Positions 34,101 to 44,715 of a DNA stretch of 64,000 bases are shown in pieces. The notes under the pieces were generated by a model, which was not told where the DNA came from, did not search any database, and saw nothing but the letters and a program-made list of their open reading frames with translations. The DNA is taken from the NCBI RefSeq assembly GCF_024713945.1, contig NC_134685.1, positions 2,103,001 through 2,167,000 of the forward strand. The letters are read 5' to 3'. Position numbers and translations under genes: made by a program. The DNA comes from Dermatophagoides farinae. Its lineage: Eukaryota > Arthropoda > Arachnida > Sarcoptiformes > Pyroglyphidae. The stretch's first letter is position 1. Each line of letters opens with the position of its first letter.

Positions 34101-35711
34101 AACAGAAATTCTTTATCCGAATCCGGAAACTAAATTATTGTCATTGTTCATCATCATCATTTTTTTTTGGTACCAAATAAATAAAGCAACAAATAACGTA
34201 ATCAAAATGAAACAAATAAAATGACGACAAAGTTGATGACAATGATGATGATGATGATGATGATAAAAAACAACACAGAAAAAACGTTTTTTTTTCTTGT
34301 TCATCATCGAAACTAAGTAGAAACAAAAAAAACTTTTTCAATACAATTTTGTTCAACAGACAACAAAAAAAACTGACCAGGATTGATGTGTACAGTAAAA
34401 ATGATGATGATGATGAAGGAAAAGCAAACGGTTCACAGAAAGAGAGAATTTTCAAAGTTTCGGTATTTGTGTGTGTGTTTGGTAGAAATAATTTCACTTT
34501 TTTTTTCATTTACTGCCACAGAAACTTTCTTTATGGTTGATTCAATTCGTAGTTATTTTGTGTTTGTTTGAATTTGGTTGAATTCTTTTTTTGTGTGTGG
34601 GGGAGGGGGGGAGTTGAGAAAAAAAATTTCAAAAGTCAAACACAACCACGTAGAATTGTATCAATTTCATTTTTTCATCACATATATAAATCTTATTTGC
34701 ATATACCACCAATCTATCGAAATCGATACACAACCACCATACCATACCATACTATTGATGATGAACAATAACCAACAATAAAGTCGACAACGATTGTCTA
34801 TGTCTGTGTGATGTGTTCATCATCGACATTCGATGTTTTCATAAAAGGTTGTGTGTTCCAGAATTTCATCATCATCATCATCATCATTTGGTAGCTGTGA
34901 TAGAAATAATGATTTTTTAACGACTTTTCAACAAATCACATTATTGTGTGTGTGTCCGTATAACCATCAAATCAATGTTTTAAGCCTTGTACTATTAAAC
35001 TATTGTCCCAATGGCTTTACGACGACGATGACGACGACAATAACGAAAAAAATAGATTAGAATTGAATTGAAGTAAATTTTCAACAAAAAAAAAAATAAA
35101 AAAATAAAAACTCACTTTTTTTCATTGTTGAAATGAATTCAATTCGGTGGGGGCAGAATCGGGTTGTAGTTTAATGAAACAAAACAATTTTTCATTTTGC
35201 TCCCACCACCATCGTACCATCACCACCACGCACAAAATGAAAAATGATTCAAAATGTCAAATGTTTTTTTTTTGTTTCATTTCACAAACTTTGACCTCTC
35301 GTGTCTCTCCACCCATCAACCAGTAACCAGTTAAGGATTTTCGATTCTTTTCTTTTCTTCTTTTTTTTCGAATACGAGAAAAAAAAAATCGATACATTGT
35401 TTTTGATGGGCAATGAATCATTCGGTGTAGATTTATATCTCCTTTGAGAATTTTCTTTCACAATTATTTAATGTTAAATTCCTCCATTTTTTTCTATAAA
35501 TGTCAGCATTTATGGTTCCGGGGTCAAATCATTTGGCTTTTACAGAAACAAAAAAAACCGATTCAAAAATCCATTGTATGGGCGGGTATATTTCACATGT
35601 GATTCACTTTTCATCGGTTCTGCACGGTTGATTTTTTCCACATCATCATCATGATCCATTTCGATTGGTGTTGGTGTTGGTATTGGTATTGGTGGTGATG
35701 GTGATTATATA
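31155..35711. other. Intergenic DNA up to the retrotransposon
   Basis: Long T and A runs, TTG/CAA arrays (33,497-33,521, 33,556-33,571), TCA arrays (34,866-34,889), CA tracts (32,236-32,260, 32,692-32,715) and GGTC/TTGG cryptic repeats (33,930-33,978). Open frames of up to 165 codons here are driven by repeats. From about 35.1 kb microsatellites thin out. No gene was seen. Confidence 0.55.
35708..35711. repeat. Target-site duplication, left copy
   Basis: TATA directly before the 5' LTR matches TATA directly after the 3' LTR (42,313-42,316). Confidence 0.75.
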
Positions 35712-36246
35712 TGTAATGGCCATGCATCCACTCCCATTTATTTCACTTGTTACTTTCTGGTTACCATATTTGGATTGAAATAATGAATATGGGTGAAGAT
35801 AACAATAAGAAGTGAAGGTGACATTAATTAGCTTATTTTTGAAGATATTTCAAGAATTTGGCAATGATTAAATAGGTCATGAAATTATATTTTCTATTTT
35901 CCCTCTTATTATTTCTTTTGCTTTATTTTTGGCAATCTCTTACGCTTTGCATCTTTATTCTTTTGGTATATAAACCATAGACAGACTGAACATTGGGATC
36001 CGTTATTTCGCCGTTCATTTTCATCTAATTTTATTCTATTTTAATAAATTTTGTTCAATGTCTAAAACGTGTATTTGATGATCATTTATTTCGAGTTTGA
36101 TTGCGTTTAATGTGATCACCGTCGGTTATTTAGATTTTGGAATAAAACGCGACTCTAGTGGCCGAAATAGTGAGTATTATCAATTCTCAACCCTCGATCT
36201 AGCTGTTAAAAAGTCTGGTAAGGAATAACTTCCGCCAGGTCTTTCA
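35712..36246 (+). repeat. 5' LTR (535 bp)
   Basis: TGTAATGG...CTTTCA. Apart from one substitution and a 2-bp TA indel it is identical to 41,776-42,312. Confidence 0.96.
35967..36048 (+). promoter_or_regulatory. LTR TATA box and AATAAA signal
   Basis: TATATAAA at 35,967-35,974 and AATAAA at 36,043-36,048 define a plausible promoter and polyadenylation region inside the 5' LTR. The 3' LTR copy has TATATATAAA at the same place. The transcription start has not been mapped. Confidence 0.55.
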
Positions 36247-36563
36247 AGCCAACAGGATTCAGTCTAATCTGTGACTGGATTCTACTCTATTGCTTGAGAA
36301 TAATAATACTTATTAGACGAACGTTTTTCCTCTATCTATTTTGTGAGTTGTTGTTATATCAACGTTAACTCCAAATATCTCAACACACATTAATCATTCA
36401 AATATAGCGTCCCAGACCAGGGTTTGGTCCATAATAACACGTGTTACAATTATTGAGTCAAATTTATATTATTTATAATATTTTGGACGCCATAAAACTT
36501 CTCTTGGTAAGTTTTGCTTGTAAATAAATTCTTAATTTGTTTTTTTTAATTTTTCTAATTAAA

Positions 36564-37145
36564 ATGGCCACAACAAGATCACTGACTCATGATCTTATCA
36601 AAACTGCCAAGTTGAAGGTTGATCATGTACACAAGACTTTGTTGGAAATTAAAGATGAGGTTGCTAGAGAACTGACTAGCGACCGTATTCAACAATTGTA
36701 TGTCCATTTGGGAGATCTACGTGATTTAATAGTCAACACTATGTCATTAGTAGATAAAGGGGAGAAAGAAGGTAATAAAGTTCTTCCCATTATTGATTTG
36801 GCTACAACTTGTTTGATAATGATAACAGAACTAACTTCTGAATTAGATTCTAAAGCTGTTAGTAGATCTTTATCTCTTCCAACAAGGTACGAAAATGACG
36901 GTGATAGGATCTCTTCCGTTTATACATCAGGTTTGGTAACACCAAAACATTTCGGAAGAAATCTAGAAATTTCGGATCCAACTACTACAGTTTTTACATC
37001 TTCTGTAAAAACAGTTCACACTGAAATGTTTTCCACACCAGAATCCTTGCCAAACACGAGAGGTTTTATTGCAAGATCACTTGTTTCCAGATTATTTTCA
37101 AGACCTAAATTCCTTGATTTAACTGCTCCAAAAACAATTAATTGA
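36564..37145 (+). CDS. Short intact ORF in gag position of the retrotransposon
   Basis: A 193-codon frame opening MATTRSLTHDLIKTAK and closing KTIN-TGA, preceded by a 5' leader of about 320 bp after the LTR. An in-frame upstream ATG at 36,537 would add nine hydrophobic residues, but 36,564 has the better context (AAAATGG). The N-terminal half is predicted helical, with DRIQQLYVHLGDLRDLIV. The C-terminal half is Ser/Thr-rich. There is no CCHC zinc knuckle and no recognisable capsid major-homology motif, so assignment as Gag rests on position alone. It is the only intact frame of the element, which suggests selection or recent age, while pol next to it is ruined. Confidence 0.6.
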   Translation: MATTRSLTHDLIKTAKLKVDHVHKTLLEIKDEVARELTSDRIQQLYVHLGDLRDLIVNTMSLVDKGEKEGNKVLPIIDLATTCLIMITELTSELDSKAVSRSLSLPTRYENDGDRISSVYTSGLVTPKHFGRNLEISDPTTTVFTSSVKTVHTEMFSTPESLPNTRGFIARSLVSRLFSRPKFLDLTAPKTIN

Positions 37146-37375
37146 GAAATTTAACGTTTTCATAAATATTGGTGAAATTAGCTCAATTAGCATTGTCACC
37201 TGTCGAATTAACCTGATGAATGAAGTTTCCCATCAATTTAAGTTTCTATTGTATAAAGAGTTGTTGATCGGATAAAATATTATTTGGGAAAGGTTTGATC
37301 GGTTTGAATATCGAATTATTTCTATTATCAAAAATTTTAAATTGATTTGTCAATTTAACGGTAAAGTAGAATTTT

Positions 37376-38405
37376 TATCAAAGAATTATTCCAAACAAAC
37401 TAAGGTTGCTAGCTCCATTGAATGAATTGTTAAAGTAAGATCGAGATTTTAATTGGACAGCGGATGTTGAAATAACATTTAATAAATAATTAAAATCTTA
37501 ACATCTGATCTGGTGTTACATATCTTTGATCCTGATAAAGCAGTAATTACTATTACTTTTAAATCCAATGTTAGTATTGGGGCTGTCCTTAAACAAAAGA
37601 TACTGAATTGGATGATGACAGAGATATGTTAACGGTTGGGTATTTCTTTAGAAGATTATAACAGTATAAGATAAATTATTCTGCTTTCGAAAATGAATGC
37701 TTAGCTATAGTTGAATTATCAACATACGGGCATCATTAAATGTATTGGAAAGAATTAATAATTCAAACTAATCATAAGTATTTGAAGTTTTCAACTCAAT
37801 TTTACATCCTCAACCATAGAATTTTGAATTGAGTTTTGGGGCTAAAGTCAATACAATTTTGAAGTTGTATCTAGAATGTCTAAAGCAAAGCAGTTCTAAA
37901 GAAAATAAGGTTACTTCATCATCTCGGCTCGGCAGCAGAGCTATCTAAGATAAATTCATATTGATTTTATTGGAAATTTTAGAGAGTTTTCTCTTAATTA
38001 AGGTATTTTCATGTGACAATAGACACATTTTATTGATACGTTTGGGGAGTAATTTCTAAAACCCAAACGTAAGTGATTTTCAGTGATCAAATAATAAAAT
38101 TATATAAAAAAAAAACTTAGTTCTAAGGCTAGAAGGTCCATTAGGAAATTTTAATTTGATTTGTCCATCACCCCCTGATGTAGTGAAAACCGTTTGTGAA
38201 TCATGAAGATATTGTTTACATAGAAAATATTGATCTGGTAAATTCAAATGAGTTAGTTCCTGAAGAATCCGATGAAGAAGAGGAAGACATACAGTATGAG
38301 CAATCAGAGTTAGAAGACAATTTGATCACAAGAAATTTTGAATTAGTTCAAACACCTGTATCTCCACTTCTCTCAACGACATCGACTTCAATTTCTAACC
38401 AAATT
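37376..38405 (+). pseudogene. Decayed pol: RT connection, RNase H, integrase remnants
   Basis: In shifting frames and interrupted by stops, the order is as follows. LAPLNELLK then DFNWTADVEITF (37,410-37,480) matches the Ty3/Gypsy RT-connection pattern. KILTSDLVLHIFDPDK and SNVSIGAVLKQK (37,491-37,600) match the start of RNase H, but the TDAS motif reads TFKS, losing the first catalytic Asp. NYSAFENECLAIVE and QTNHKYLKF (37,672-37,790) match later RNase H, with TDH reading TNH. IHIDFIGNF (37,954-37,980) matches the integrase core start. An acidic C-terminal tail is open at 38,196-38,405. Protease and the YxDD part of RT were not found, so a large deletion has occurred besides point decay. Confidence 0.85.
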
Positions 38406-38801
38406 TAAACACGTCACAACCAACTAGATTGGCGTTAATGAATCATCTGTTTACCATCATAAATCTCCAATTATATGAATCTATCATGTCCCAAGATAAT
38501 AATAATCGAATAAACAACAACATAAAACAATCAAAACAAATGTTAAATTTTCATCAAGATTTTGTTTTCTTCCAACAGTAGTGAATTCAGTAGTTGTCAA
38601 TGTATATAAATCAAAAATATTTTGCTGTATCATACAGTCAGCATTATATTTCCTCTTTCCTTTCCTATTCACACAAATTCGCCATTATTTTCGTTGATTT
38701 TGAAAAAAAAGAAACATCGACTTGTCTACAGCTTACGTCTATGCACAGATCAACATTCATCTTAAATCATTATAAATGGTAATCAAAGGACACTCGTGTG
38801 A

Positions 38802-38975
38802 AGTTTTACAAGATGGCTAAAGAAACGAAGAATAACCGTTTGGTCTTTTGACATCTTTAATGAAATATGTTATGATGCAGTGTTAAATGTGTTTGATGTA
38901 GTGATTTTATCATCAATAGTTGTAGCATCGATGATATTTGGTGCTTTCGTTAAAAAACCGAATACAAATCTCTGA
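38802..38975 (+). pseudogene. Membrane-segment ORF after pol, env-position fragment
   Basis: A 57-codon frame with RWLKKRRITVWSFDIF, then a hydrophobic segment (VVILSSIVVASMIFGAFV) flanked by Lys, then TGA. Its place behind pol and the single membrane anchor are what would be expected for the tail of an envelope-like third ORF, as in some Ty3/Gypsy lineages. No surface-domain motif was recognised and no initiating methionine was found. It may instead be a captured host fragment. Confidence 0.35.
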
Positions 38976-40276
38976 TCAATCAATAACAGAGATAGAAAAT
39001 AGAAGATTTGTCAAAAGATTTATGAAGATATTTACAAATTGATTTAACATCTAACAACGAACTAATCAAAATAGAATGTGTCTACGTAACCAGATTCATT
39101 TCATCTATATTCAGTGCCAGTATTCTACAAGCAGAATGAAGTATCATTGAAGTATTTGAGTGAAAATCTCCGAAGTTGTTTGCAATTAAAACCACAAATG
39201 AAGATAATTGTTGCTTTATGAAATACACTGGTCTGAATTTCTATTCCCTTTTAAAAGCGTCAGACATTTTCTTCGATTTAATTAATGATTATCAATCGAC
39301 ATTTGTGTTCCATTCAATTAGTAAGAAGAATATTTGTCTAGAAGATATATGGAATCTTTTTCACTGTTTGGGTCAACGTTTCCTTATAAGAGTCAAGTTT
39401 ATGGAATTCAACATGGACGAAACATCATTGAAATGGTTGGTTGATAACATAAAAAAAAAAAAAAAAATATCATCATGACAGAATCTTCATAATCAAACCT
39501 CATTGGTCTTCAACGAAAAACTAGCTGTGAATTAAGTGTGATTGAAAAAAAAAAAAATTTTTTTTTTGCAGTCTAAATTATTTATAATTATAATCATTGG
39601 TTAACATATTTGGCACAGAAACTATTCTTTTTTGTATTGTAAAGAAACAATTTAAATTTATTGTATCGAAACAGTTGAATGTGTTTTAAATGTTTTACCT
39701 TGATTGACAAATTATATTTGTAATGAATTTTCATTCTTTGAAAAGCGAATAAGGAATCAATGAACGGTCAGTCTGGTTTTATACTAAACTTTGTTAGGGA
39801 ATTATTTTAGATCACTTTTCATTTCTTTTCTTTTCTTTTCTTTCTTTTGCTTACTTTTATGTGATCTAAATCTTTTCTCAACCCCTACCCCTTTTCTTTT
39901 GCTTCTCATGTATGATATGCTTTTCATTTTTATCAATGTTTACTCATCGAACAAAGAAGATTTTCTAACAAACTTCCAACGTCACTCTCTCTCTTCTAAG
40001 TTGCTTGAAACAAACTACGATGTTTTGAATTGAATATTGTTTTCAACAATTTTTCAATTTAATGGAATTTGTCCATTTCAAATTTCTTTCGTATTGTTTT
40101 TGGAATCTGTTCCTGATAATGGAAAATATAACGATTCATCACAATTCATTATACGTTATATTTTGAAATCAATAATATTGTTGTCATTGGTGACTACCGA
40201 TTTTTATCAGTCTATGATGATAAAATATAAATTGTTGGATACCATTGAAGAAATTCTGAAATCATTGAATATTCTC

Positions 40277-40307
<31 letters not shown>

Positions 40308-41761
40308 TTGAGTGTTCATCTTTGTTTTGAACTAATAGTGAATGATTCATCATTAATTTCATCAATTTACTTTTCAAGATTATTGATCTATCGTAATGAT
40401 AGATATTAAATCTTGGATTAATAATGATTGAAATCGTTATTTCAATCCAGAATATGAGTTATATTCATCAAATATTGAATTGTTGAAATTGTTCATCACC
40501 ATCATTTGATTTAATATCATCACCATCAAAAATTTAAAATTATAGTTTTGTTCAGTGATATTGAATAAGATTTTTTTCAAACGATCTTGGAATTTATCCA
40601 CAATGTTAAAGCAGAAATTTTGGAAAAGAATGATTAATCATGTTGGTCATGATTTAAAATCATTTGAAAATCATTTTTCGAAATTTAATTGATCAATCGA
40701 TTCAAATTATCAAAGTCAAACTTTGGCCATATGAAGAATTTATAAACAATATTTTCAAAATTGATAAAAATCGTGATAATTTTATAAAATGCTATTTCAA
40801 TCATAATTGTGAATTGTTTTACAGAATATCAAAATATGTGAATTATTTACCATCACTATCATCATTACCATTAGTTTTGTTAACTTCATAATCCATAAAA
40901 AAAAAGTGATTCCTGAATATGTTTCCAAATCAAAAACAATATCAACACCCTCACAAAAGTTCACAACGACAACTTTATTGTCATCAATTATTGTTTCGTC
41001 AATAATAACGACGATTATGAATGATAATGGAATAATCAATGTTTGTGAGAAGGATACTTCAATTTAAAAAAAAAAAAAAAAAACGTTTAATTCAACGAAC
41101 TGAATGACTGAAGTGTTTCATTTAAAAAAAAAAACCATCTGAAACATCAATTTTAAGTTGTTATCCAGTTATCAAATCAATATCCTCGAAATCGATTATA
41201 ACCATGAACAAACTTAAAGTTTTCACCTATCTTGAAATTAACTACGAGGAAATCTAAAGTTCCTGTCCATTTTGACAATCAAAACCATGAAATTGAAAAT
41301 AAATAAATCATCAACATCAAAAAAATTAATCCTGAATTTGAAACCTGAAGAATCTAATAAATTGATTCATCAAAGTAATTTGAAAATTCTGAAAAGTTGA
41401 ATCTATGATGATCAACGAAGAGCGTGGAAAATCGATAATCAATATTTTAAAGAAATTCAAATTATTGGAACAATAATTTCTGACATGATCATTTCATTGC
41501 AATTGATCTATTTGATTAAATAATTGAATTCAATTAAAATTAATTGAGAAGAATATGTCATATACCGAAAAATTGGTAATAATTAATAATGATCAATAAT
41601 GAAACAAACAATTCTTCACCTTTGGTAAAAATAGAAGAAGACATAGTGAACCAAAATGAAACAAGCAAGAGTTCAACTGATACATTTGAAAATAAGCTAT
41701 ATCATACACTTTCCTTTTCCTTTTCTTTCTTTGCTCTTTTATTTCCGACCTAATTTCCGTC
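38976..41761 (+). other. Unassigned retrotransposon interior, broken coding-like frames
   Basis: About 2.8 kb without microsatellites but with long, repeatedly broken frames on the + strand: 39,176-39,478, 39,791-40,033, 40,037-40,330 and 40,664-40,891. Readings such as LEDIWNLFHCLGQRFLI and LKSIILLSLVTTDFY are helical and Leu/Ile-rich. Three A-runs interrupt it (about 39,451, 40,278 and 41,066). The texture is that of a decayed coding sequence, not ordinary intergenic DNA of this window. It could be the rest of a third ORF or host sequence picked up by the element. No family is recognised. Confidence 0.5.
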
Positions 41762-41775
41762 AAAGAGTGGGGGGA
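41762..41775 (+). other. Polypurine tract
   Basis: AAAGAGTGGGGGGA, one pyrimidine only, lies directly before the 3' LTR and would prime plus-strand DNA synthesis. Confidence 0.8.
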
Positions 41776-42312
41776 TGTAATGGCCAAGCATCCACTCCCA
41801 TTTATTTCACTTGTTACTTTCTGGTTACCATATTTGGATTGAAATAATGAATATGGGTGAAGATAACAATAAGAAGTGAAGGTGACATTAATTAGCTTAT
41901 TTTTGAAGATATTTCAAGAATTTGGCAATGATTAAATAGGTCATGAAATTATATTTTCTATTTTCCCTCTTATTATTTCTTTTGCTTTATTTTTGGCAAT
42001 CTCTTACGCTTTGCATCTTTATTCTTTTGGTATATATAAACCATAGACAGACTGAACATTGGGATCCGTTATTTCGCCGTTCATTTTCATCTAATTTTAT
42101 TCTATTTTAATAAATTTTGTTCAATGTCTAAAACGTGTATTTGATGATCATTTATTTCGAGTTTGATTGCGTTTAATGTGATCACCGTCGGTTATTTAGA
42201 TTTTGGAATAAAACGCGACTCTAGTGGCCGAAATAGTGAGTATTATCAATTCTCAACCCTCGATCTAGCTGTTAAAAAGTCTGGTAAGGAATAACTTCCG
42301 CCAGGTCTTTCA
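41776..42312 (+). repeat. 3' LTR (537 bp)
   Basis: TGTAATGG...CTTTCA. It differs from the 5' copy by one base and an extra TA in the TATA region. Confidence 0.96.
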
Positions 42313-42316
42313 TATA
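42313..42316. repeat. Target-site duplication, right copy
   Basis: TATA, matching 35,708-35,711. Confidence 0.75.
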
Positions 42317-44715
42317 TTACGGGGGAGTGGAAGGATTTGCGAAACGAAAAATAAAAATCAGCACTTCTGTTCTGTGTGTATATGTTTATGGCAACGGTAA
42401 TGGTGGTAAGGATGGGCAAATGTTGTGTTCAAGAATTTAATTCCAAAACGACAAAAAAAAATTCCATTTTTTTCGATTATAAACATCAAAGATCATCATC
42501 ATCATATATATAATCGAATGATTTGATTCAATGTCATCATCCATTATATATTCGATATATTGCAACGGCGGTCGTAATAACCGATTTACATAGGGAAATA
42601 AAAAAAAAATGCCGGAACCACAATAGAAGAGAGATGGAGACAAAATGTTGATGGTGGTGATGATGATTCCACCATCACTACGAATAATACAGCAGCAATT
42701 TATGAAGAGTTTTGACATTTGAAAACTTTTTTTTCTTTTCTTCATCATCATCATCATTTTGTTTTGACTTTAACGATTGAATTGAATATTAAAACGAACG
42801 AGATTCAATGAGATTCCAGTTTTTTTGACTTTAGTTATGATTGTTGTTGTGTTTATTCACATGTTGACGAAAAAAAAGAAGAAAAATTGAGTGAATGCAC
42901 TGAATGAGATGAATTCATATAAAGCACAACAATGAAATGGGCCTAGAATCTAGGCCCTATAGATGGATGGATGAATGGATGGTTGACTGACTGACTGACT
43001 GAATGAATTCTGTTTTTTTTTCTTCATCTTAAAGATTCATAAGAAGAAATAAAAAAACATTCAAGAAATAAATAAAAAGAACGATGCTGATGATGATGAT
43101 GACGATACTTTCTTCTTCGATGGTTTCGGTTGGTTTGATGATAATAATAAAATGTAAAATGGATGAAAAAAGAAAAAAAAACAAACTGTACAAACAAGTG
43201 ATGTAGTCGTTGTTGTTGTTGTTGTTTTGTTTTTTGTTCATCTTTATATATTATATTAGATGATGATGATGATGCTTTTGCTGTATATAAAGAGAGATGA
43301 ACGATTCTGGATCATGAACTACATTTCATATATTCTCTTTATGAATTCGGATTTATGAAAAGTGGTGGTGTCTGGTCTGGTCTGGTCTATGGTTATATTA
43401 TAATACATGTATAAGATTTGTTTTGCTATTTTTTTCCATCTTGATCTTGATCATAATCATCATTGTGATAGACATCATTTTCGGTTATTGTTTTGATGTT
43501 TTTGTTGTTGTTGTTGTATATATGATTTGGCCATGAGGGAATCTGGTCTATTTTCATTCCATCATCATCATCATCATTGAAAACATTTCATTTTCCGATT
43601 TTTTTTTCCGTCTTGTGATTCTGAAACTTTTATTCGGTTGATTCATTTTTTTTACTTCTTTATATATTTTGAATTCTTATGTTGATCCGTATACATATGG
43701 CTTCCGTGATGGTCATCATCATCAGTTTTCTATGAACGATATATATAGTTATTATTATTATTATTATTGAAAAAAAATATATGCAAGGCCTTTTTACTCA
43801 CACCAAGAGATATTATTGATTCTATTTTTTTTTCTCAGTATGATTGATCGAAAACGGAAAGAAGAAGAAAAAAAAGATTCTTGTCGATCGACATTTTTAT
43901 GATGATGATGATGACGATGAATTGGATGAAAGGAATTTCTTTTTGAAAAATGAAGATTGTAAAATTTCTTTGTAAAGAATTCCTCCCTTATTGTTGTCGC
44001 TGTTTAAAAGTCAAATATGAAGGTAGTGGTTGTTCATTGGTGGTGGTGGTGGTGCTGGCGGTGGTGGTGGTTGAATTGAATCGAACTTGGAAATTTATAA
44101 ATGGAATTCAAGAATCAAAAGAACCATATCATCCATTCATTATATACATAGTGTTTATTTATTCCGTTTCATGATGATTTCACTTGGGAAATGGCAAATT
44201 ATCATCTATGATAAAACAAATAAAAACAAAAAACAAAACAGAATGTCATTAATTGTCACACTAATATAATCATTAAAGAAATAATGATTGTTGACATATT
44301 CCATTTCAACAAATTGAGAAGAATCATAAATGATTTGGTCATCATCATCATCAAGCATCGGTCGTTTGGTCATCACGATCATTTACGATTGATGACAGAT
44401 GATTGAAAAACAATTTTCTATATGAGCAAAAAAAAAAAAGAAAAAAGTAAACAAGTCTATTAATAGAATGAATGATGAATGACGATACAAACTTTTTTTT
44501 TGTGACAATTAACAGTTATAACTGATCATTTTTGCGAATGAGTTTGTGAGTTGAAATTGAAATTTCACAATTTCGGCCGTCCAATCTAGCCTATATTTTT
44601 TTTGATTGAATCTTCCTCATGGAAGGGTCAATAACGCATTTTCACCACACACACACACACACACCTGGAAATGGAATAAAATTATTTGATTCACTGGAAA
44701 AACCATCATTAAAAA
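42317..44715. other. Repeat-rich DNA, no gene recognised
   Basis: Holds TGAC tetranucleotides (42,982-42,999), ATG arrays, a GGT-rich patch (44,036-44,070) and A/T runs. Open frames (e.g. 42,437-42,757 -, 43,950-44,174 +) have no recognisable domain. Confidence 0.55.

What the first reader, a model, noticed from the sequence alone, without database searches (positions are those of the whole stretch)
35712..42312. Near-identical LTRs around a dead, deleted pol: likely trans-mobilised element
The two LTRs differ by one base and one TA indel over about 535 bp, which implies recent insertion. Yet pol has lost protease and the RT active site, carries many stops and frameshifts, and has RNase H motifs altered at catalytic positions (TDAS to TFKS, TDH to TNH). 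Only the short gag-position ORF is intact. This fits a non-autonomous family that keeps its cis signals (LTR, polypurine tract) and perhaps one protein while borrowing pol from a partner.
Basis: partly seen in the sequence, partly recalled or inferred. Interest (0 to 1): 0.75.

Follow-up and report, generated by a model that had tools for sequence, protein, structure and literature searches.

The report
Dead mite retrovirus-like element still copying
A broken retrovirus-like element in a house dust mite genome has lost nearly all its genes yet inserted recently in two places, so it very likely moves by borrowing proteins from an intact relative, a known life-style of parasitic DNA.

Summary
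Window 35712-42312 is a complete LTR element: two LTRs (one substitution and one TA indel apart), 4-bp target duplication, tRNA-Ser-like primer site, polypurine tract, a 193-codon gag-position ORF, and relics of pol, env and further ORFs. The host is most likely Dermatophagoides farinae (Der f 2 match). A second full-length copy on another contig has different flanks, its own target duplication and identical LTRs. It carries 27 of 28 of the same stops and the same four large gag-pol gaps. The lesions therefore predate both insertions, and the family was copied while dead. The only relative found with exactly matching polypurine tract/LTR start and an open gag-pol ORF is one recent insertion on contig 5 (LTRs about 69-74% identical to the window's), which also carries an env-like ORF and extra ORFs. 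Best reading: a small non-autonomous endogenous-retrovirus family mobilised in trans, probably by that lineage. The intact ORF is only the Gag N-terminus, so Gag too must be borrowed. Selection on this ORF is not shown. This is a new member of a known kind (compare mouse IAP 1delta1, ETn/MusD, plant TR-GAG). Trans-mobilisation itself is inferred.

The parts
35708..35711 (.). left target site duplication TATA
   Evidence: flank ...TTATATA before TGTAATGG; right flank TATATTACGG
35712..36246 (+). 5' LTR, 535 bp, TG...CA
35967..35978 (+). TATA block TATATAAACCAT, identical in the contig-5 relative
   Evidence: run of 12 identical bases, given there for the 3' LTR; 5' LTR coordinate read
36247..36260 (+). 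primer binding site AGCCAACAGGATTC, 14/14 complementary to tRNA-Ser(CGA) starting 6 nt inside the tRNA 3' end
36506..36512 (+). possible splice donor GGTAAGT, conserved in the relative (consensus recalled)
   Evidence: alignment; coordinate read
36564..37145 (+). intact 193-codon ORF = N-terminal part of Gag only; same stop in both copies
   Evidence: single-sequence model gives long helices 3-33, 39-65, 74-100 and a low-confidence rest
37132..37266 (+). relic of the start of RT; about 558 codons before it (presumed capsid, zinc knuckles, protease) missing
37330..37859 (+). RNase H relic with stops and a frame change; RT catalytic core before it missing
37884..38066 (+). integrase relic with stops; about 118 codons before and 197 after it missing
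38199..38459 (+). relic of the pol C-terminal tail
38614..39426 (+). env-like relic, several frames
39875..41741 (+). relic of the extra downstream ORFs of the relative (first part weak, E 0.037; clear from 40612 on)
41762..41775 (+). polypurine tract AAAGAGTGGGGGGA
41776..42312 (+). 3' LTR, 537 bp
42313..42316 (.). right target site duplication TATA

Best explanation
A small non-autonomous family of a Ty3/Gypsy-type, env-bearing (retrovirus-like) element in what is most likely Dermatophagoides farinae. An ancestor with gag-pol, env and extra ORFs lost capsid, protease, RT and integrase but kept LTR promoter, primer site, leader, polypurine tract and LTR ends. Its RNA is packaged, reverse transcribed and integrated by proteins of a related competent element, most likely the lineage of the contig-5 copy. 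Shown: two independent recent insertions with shared prior lesions, and shared cis signals. Inferred: transcription, packaging, and who the helper is.
For: Second full copy on C7, alignment bounded at the LTR ends, target duplications TATA versus TGTA. 89 substitutions in 6579 compared sites between copies. LTRs within a copy differ by 1 substitution plus an indel (A) or by 0 (B). 27 of 28 stops and all four large gag-pol gaps are shared. Relative on C5: gag-pol open; RVP, RVT_1, RT_RNaseH and Integrase_H2C2 over their Pfam cut-offs; LTRs 1 mismatch apart. LTR start 20/20 (A's 5' LTR has one change), PPT to U3 junction 20/20, PBS core 11 nt, TATA block 12 nt and leader blocks identical to A or B.
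Against: Only two copies found. The candidate helper is one copy whose LTR is about 69% (ungapped; 62% with gaps counted) to 74% (matched parts only) identical. No expression or packaging data. No empty-site or polymorphism data. Another helper absent from this assembly is possible.
Confidence: 0.85

Rival explanations
1. Old insertion whose LTRs were homogenised by gene conversion, making it look young.
For: LTR divergence within a copy (0-0.2%) is below the divergence between the two copies (1.35%).
Against: Two sites with different flanks and target duplications share the same lesions over the whole body. Copy B LTRs are identical too. The LTRs of A and of B differ from each other at three positions fixed within each copy, as expected of two insertions from two templates.
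Confidence: 0.06
2. The element copied itself recently with its own pol, which decayed only after insertion.
For: Gag-position ORF is open.
Against: 27 of 28 stops and the four large gag-pol gaps are common to both insertions, so they predate insertion. No copy with intact pol of this family was found.
Confidence: 0.01
3. The helper is not the contig-5 lineage but another retrovirus-like family with the same polypurine tract and TGTAAT ends, or an element missing from the assembly.
For: Four further PPT-U3 junctions with 2-3 mismatches (AGTGGGGGGATGTAATATCC type), besides a 3-mismatch relic at C9:406910, and 25 env-like matches exist. Contig-5 LTR is only about 69-74% identical to A.
Against: Only C5, A and B share the junction exactly (3 of 8 hits); PBS core and leader blocks are shared with C5.
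Confidence: 0.3

Closest known systems
Mouse IAP 1delta1 subtype
   Same: Endogenous retrovirus with part of gag and pol deleted, needs Gag and Pol in trans, keeps a partial gag product, causes recent insertions (PMC6466679, passages read)
   Different: IAP 1delta1 makes a gag-pol fusion that helps in cis; here only the Gag N-terminus remains and help in cis is untested; two copies only; Ty3/Gypsy-type and in a mite
ETn/MusD
   Same: LTR element without own machinery moved by a coding-competent relative (PMC6466679, passages)
   Different: ETn has no coding capacity; here one short ORF and recognisable gene relics remain
TR-GAG elements (plants)
   Same: LTRs plus a gag ORF, pol absent, transposition shown in Arabidopsis (PMC8704663, passages read)
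   Different: TR-GAGs encode a full Gag; here the parts after the Gag N-terminus are gone
Errantiviruses (Ty3/Gypsy with env)
   Same: gag-pol-env order in the relative; 4-bp YRYR-like target duplications (preference recalled); tRNA-Ser primer (recalled for some members)
   Different: TG..CA LTR ends, whereas most LTRs of the Zam errantivirus clade lack them (PMC3601003, passages); fused gag-pol frame; extra ORFs after env; no phylogeny done

Membership tests
Non-autonomous (trans-mobilised) LTR element | paired LTRs with target site duplication | tested here: met
Non-autonomous (trans-mobilised) LTR element | PBS and PPT kept | tested here: met
Non-autonomous (trans-mobilised) LTR element | no usable pol | tested here: met
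Non-autonomous (trans-mobilised) LTR element | several copies inserted after pol was lost | tested here: met
   two copies
Non-autonomous (trans-mobilised) LTR element | coding-competent partner with the same cis signals | tested here: inconclusive
   one open-frame relative with exact LTR start, PPT and PBS core but LTR about 69-74% identical
Non-autonomous (trans-mobilised) LTR element | mobilisation by the partner's proteins | not testable with these tools
   needs experiment
TR-GAG | complete Gag ORF | tested here: not met
   only the Gag N-terminal part aligns; about 558 codons after it are missing
Ty3/Gypsy | protease-RT-RNase H-integrase order in pol | tested here: met
   in the relative: RVP, RVT_1, RT_RNaseH, Integrase_H2C2 in that order; rve at 32.5 bits is just below its cut-off of 32.6. 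Relics in the window in the same order, protease excepted
Errantivirus | env gene of insect retrovirus type | tested here: inconclusive
   530-aa ORF after pol in the relative, but no Pfam envelope family reached E 0.1
Errantivirus | placement in a pol tree | not tested
   no reference set at hand

The most novel reading that the evidence does not exclude
The surviving Gag N-terminal helical domain is the element's own working part: it joins the helper's Gag shell and favours packaging of its own RNA (or interferes with the helper), so a capsid-less Gag fragment serves as a parasite's boarding pass.
Probability: 0.18. Interest if true: 0.65.

Novelty: new member of a known kind. Interest (0 to 1): 0.42.

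Why it matters
It is a clean natural case, in a mite reported to lack the piRNA pathway (PMC5805368, passages read), of a retrovirus-like element that kept inserting after losing capsid, protease, polymerase and integrase. With one open-frame relative sharing its cis signals, it gives a small system for asking which signals suffice for cross-mobilisation and whether a Gag fragment helps.

Tried and rejected
First thought that 39164-41060 held a captured chemosensory receptor gene. A Lig_chan search of the genome gave 35 matches, none inside the element or copy B, and the contig-5 relative showed these are env and extra-ORF relics. A tRNA scan in bacterial mode found no tRNA at 4 loci; with introns allowed, 1 of 4 (L046) is tRNA-Ser(CGA).

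Selection on the Gag ORF: 0 stops in 193 codons against 26 in 1113 aligned codons of the other relics (expected about 4.5, Poisson chance about 0.01, my arithmetic; some relic pieces overlap in different frames, so this is rough). But the 8 differences between the copies are 7.5 nonsynonymous to 0.5 synonymous, not different from neutral (chance of 7 or more of 8 is 0.40). dN/dS against the relative is 0.57 for gag-N, higher than for the dead pol (0.39), env (0.32) and extra-ORF (0.45) pieces (those pieces were chosen by protein similarity, which lowers dN). So purifying selection is not established.

Low-stringency blastn of window 35001-43000 against L010-L014 gave many AT-rich matches of 52-58% identity, above all in L013 and L014; these were ignored. 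The fold model of the Gag piece was made from a single sequence (mean pLDDT 62.7) and not searched further because helical bundles match widely.

Full report
Setting. The window is contig 9, 2103001-2167000, of a 62.4-Mb, 22-contig genome. A 96-residue piece of a group 2 mite allergen gene in that genome matches Der f 2 best in the PDB, ahead of Der p 2, so the host is most likely Dermatophagoides farinae. No relatives of this genome are held.

The element. Copy A spans 35712-42312 with LTRs of 535 and 537 bp that differ by one substitution and a TA indel. The flanking 4 bp are TATA on both sides. After the 5' LTR comes AGCCAACAGGATTC, a 14/14 match to the complement of tRNA-Ser(CGA), beginning 6 nt inside the tRNA 3' end. 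The 13-mer search behind this gave 7 hits in the genome against 0 for the reversed control: 3 in this element group (A, B and the contig-9 relic), 1 in the tRNA-Ser gene, 3 elsewhere (no tRNA found at those 3). A polypurine tract AAAGAGTGGGGGGA abuts the 3' LTR.

Second copy. A search with the LTR gave 9 matches, and body searches gave 6 and 4; the tool calls such counts lower bounds. One other full-length copy was found, B on contig 7, minus strand, 2038368-2044965. Alignment of A and B stops within a few bases of the LTR ends, the flanks are unrelated, and B has its own duplication TGTA. B's two LTRs are identical. A and B differ at 89 of 6579 compared sites, with 15 indel events. Three LTR differences are shared by both LTRs of each copy, so they were most likely present in the templates.

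Shared lesions. Against the gag-pol of the contig-5 relative, copy A retains residues 1-166, 725-787, 986-1162, 1281-1341 and 1539-1625 of a 1625-residue frame (numbered from the start of L045, which lacks the first residues of Gag), and four blocks between them are missing. Of 28 stop codons in the matched gag-pol, env and extra-ORF pieces, 27 are stops in B too, and B's gag-pol pieces have the same boundaries apart from the last (1539-1617). The lesions therefore predate both insertions. The element's last copying events cannot have used its own pol or capsid.

History. Within-copy LTR divergence is 0-0.2%, but A and B differ by 1.35%. The templates had thus diverged before these insertions. 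Divergence is uneven: 24/2590 up to 38301, 56/2183 in 38302-40500, 9/1806 beyond (chi-square p about 7e-9; the regions were chosen after seeing the data, but the densest 2.2 kb held 60 substitutions and 0 of 5000 random placements reached that). Recombination between template lineages, as retroviral reverse transcription allows, is a natural reading; uneven decay is another.

Relative and possible helper. One element on contig 5 (1139797-1149956, minus strand) has LTRs one mismatch apart, TATA next to both ends in an AT-repeat context, and a single open gag-pol frame. RVP, RVT_1, RT_RNaseH and Integrase_H2C2 pass their Pfam cut-offs; rve misses its own by 0.1 bit. A 530-aa env-like ORF and two overlapping further ORFs follow. 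Env has no envelope family at E 0.1, and neither extra ORF has a match over a cut-off. Its LTR is found at full length only at its own two ends (8 matches in all). It shares with A and B the first 20 nt of the LTR (copy A's 5' LTR has one change), the PPT-U3 junction (20/20), an 11-nt PBS core, TATA and leader blocks, and a 27-nt block in the LTR. The longest LTR run was reached in 1 of 2000 shuffles and the longest leader run in 33 of 2000. Genome-wide, the 20-nt LTR start has 13 hits at up to 3 mismatches (control 0), 6 of them exact: both contig-5 LTRs, both B LTRs, A's 3' LTR and a fragment on contig 4. The PPT-U3 junction has 8 hits at up to 3 mismatches (control 0), 3 of them exact: C5, A and B.

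What the surviving ORF is. It aligns to the N-terminal part of Gag in the relative, upstream of the presumed capsid region and zinc knuckles (these parts recognised by eye; DUF1759 scored only E 0.076). A single-sequence model shows three long helices in residues 3-100 and a low-confidence rest. Evidence for selection on it is mixed, as told under tried and rejected.

Mechanism, step by step. Transcription from the LTR: inferred from the conserved TATA block. Packaging by foreign Gag, priming by tRNA-Ser, reverse transcription and integration by foreign Pol: inferred from kept cis signals and recent insertions. Insertion after loss of pol: shown. The contig-5 lineage as helper: plausible, about 0.6.

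Comparison. PMC6466679 (passages) describes IAP 1delta1 proviruses that need Gag and Pol in trans while their partial gag-pol product helps in cis, and ETn moved by MusD. PMC8704663 (passages) shows a plant TR-GAG transposing. PMC3286476 (passages) describes mosquito non-autonomous LTR elements without a known master copy. The present family works like these. It is not a TR-GAG, since Gag is incomplete. PMC3601003 (passages) says that most LTRs of the Zam errantivirus clade lack the TG..CA ends that this element has, which speaks against filing it there. [quoted passage not shown] farinae and siRNA master loci for transposons.

Print. Searches naming Dermatophagoides or mites listed no paper whose title or abstract start points to this family. 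The list shows 12 of 300 papers, none of which names Dermatophagoides. Of the listed papers, the passages of PMC5805368 (no mention of LTR or gypsy), PMC6275457 (retroviral gene expansions in trombidid mites) and PMC4641413 (Gypsy and Copia fragments in the scabies mite) were read; PMC3286476, also on the list, was read in passages; the rest were seen as listings. This covers only the open-licence library.

Noticed in passing
L010:2009-3947 (contig 5, minus strand): Two overlapping extra ORFs (376 and 316 aa) after env in the open-frame relative. By eye a signal peptide and a membrane segment; no Pfam match over a cut-off. Relics also in the window element and copy B, and a 51% match at C7:3028966 with 5 stops. 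Function unknown.
   Followed up: partly
contig 9, about 405785-422723 (outside window; partly L012): Cluster of broken retrovirus-like pieces: env piece 93% identical to the contig-5 env, an A-like LTR/gag start, and several RT and env matches. Could be a transposon-control locus; not tested.
   Followed up: no
C5:2852901, C6:2880120, C6:2889341, C7:2128815: Four PPT-U3 junctions of type AGTGGGGGGATG(T/C)AATATCC, probably a sister family.
   Followed up: no
L052 near 1500 (contig 10:493448): Inverted repeat whose arms include GCCAACAGG and CCTGTTGGC, resembling the primer site; no tRNA found.
   Followed up: no
L045:322-5199: Gag and Pol of the relative lie in one open frame, with C/H-rich clusters (by eye) and a very weak DUF1759 match (E 0.076), a family recalled from BEL/Pao Gag, next to a Ty3/Gypsy-type pol.
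   Followed up: partly
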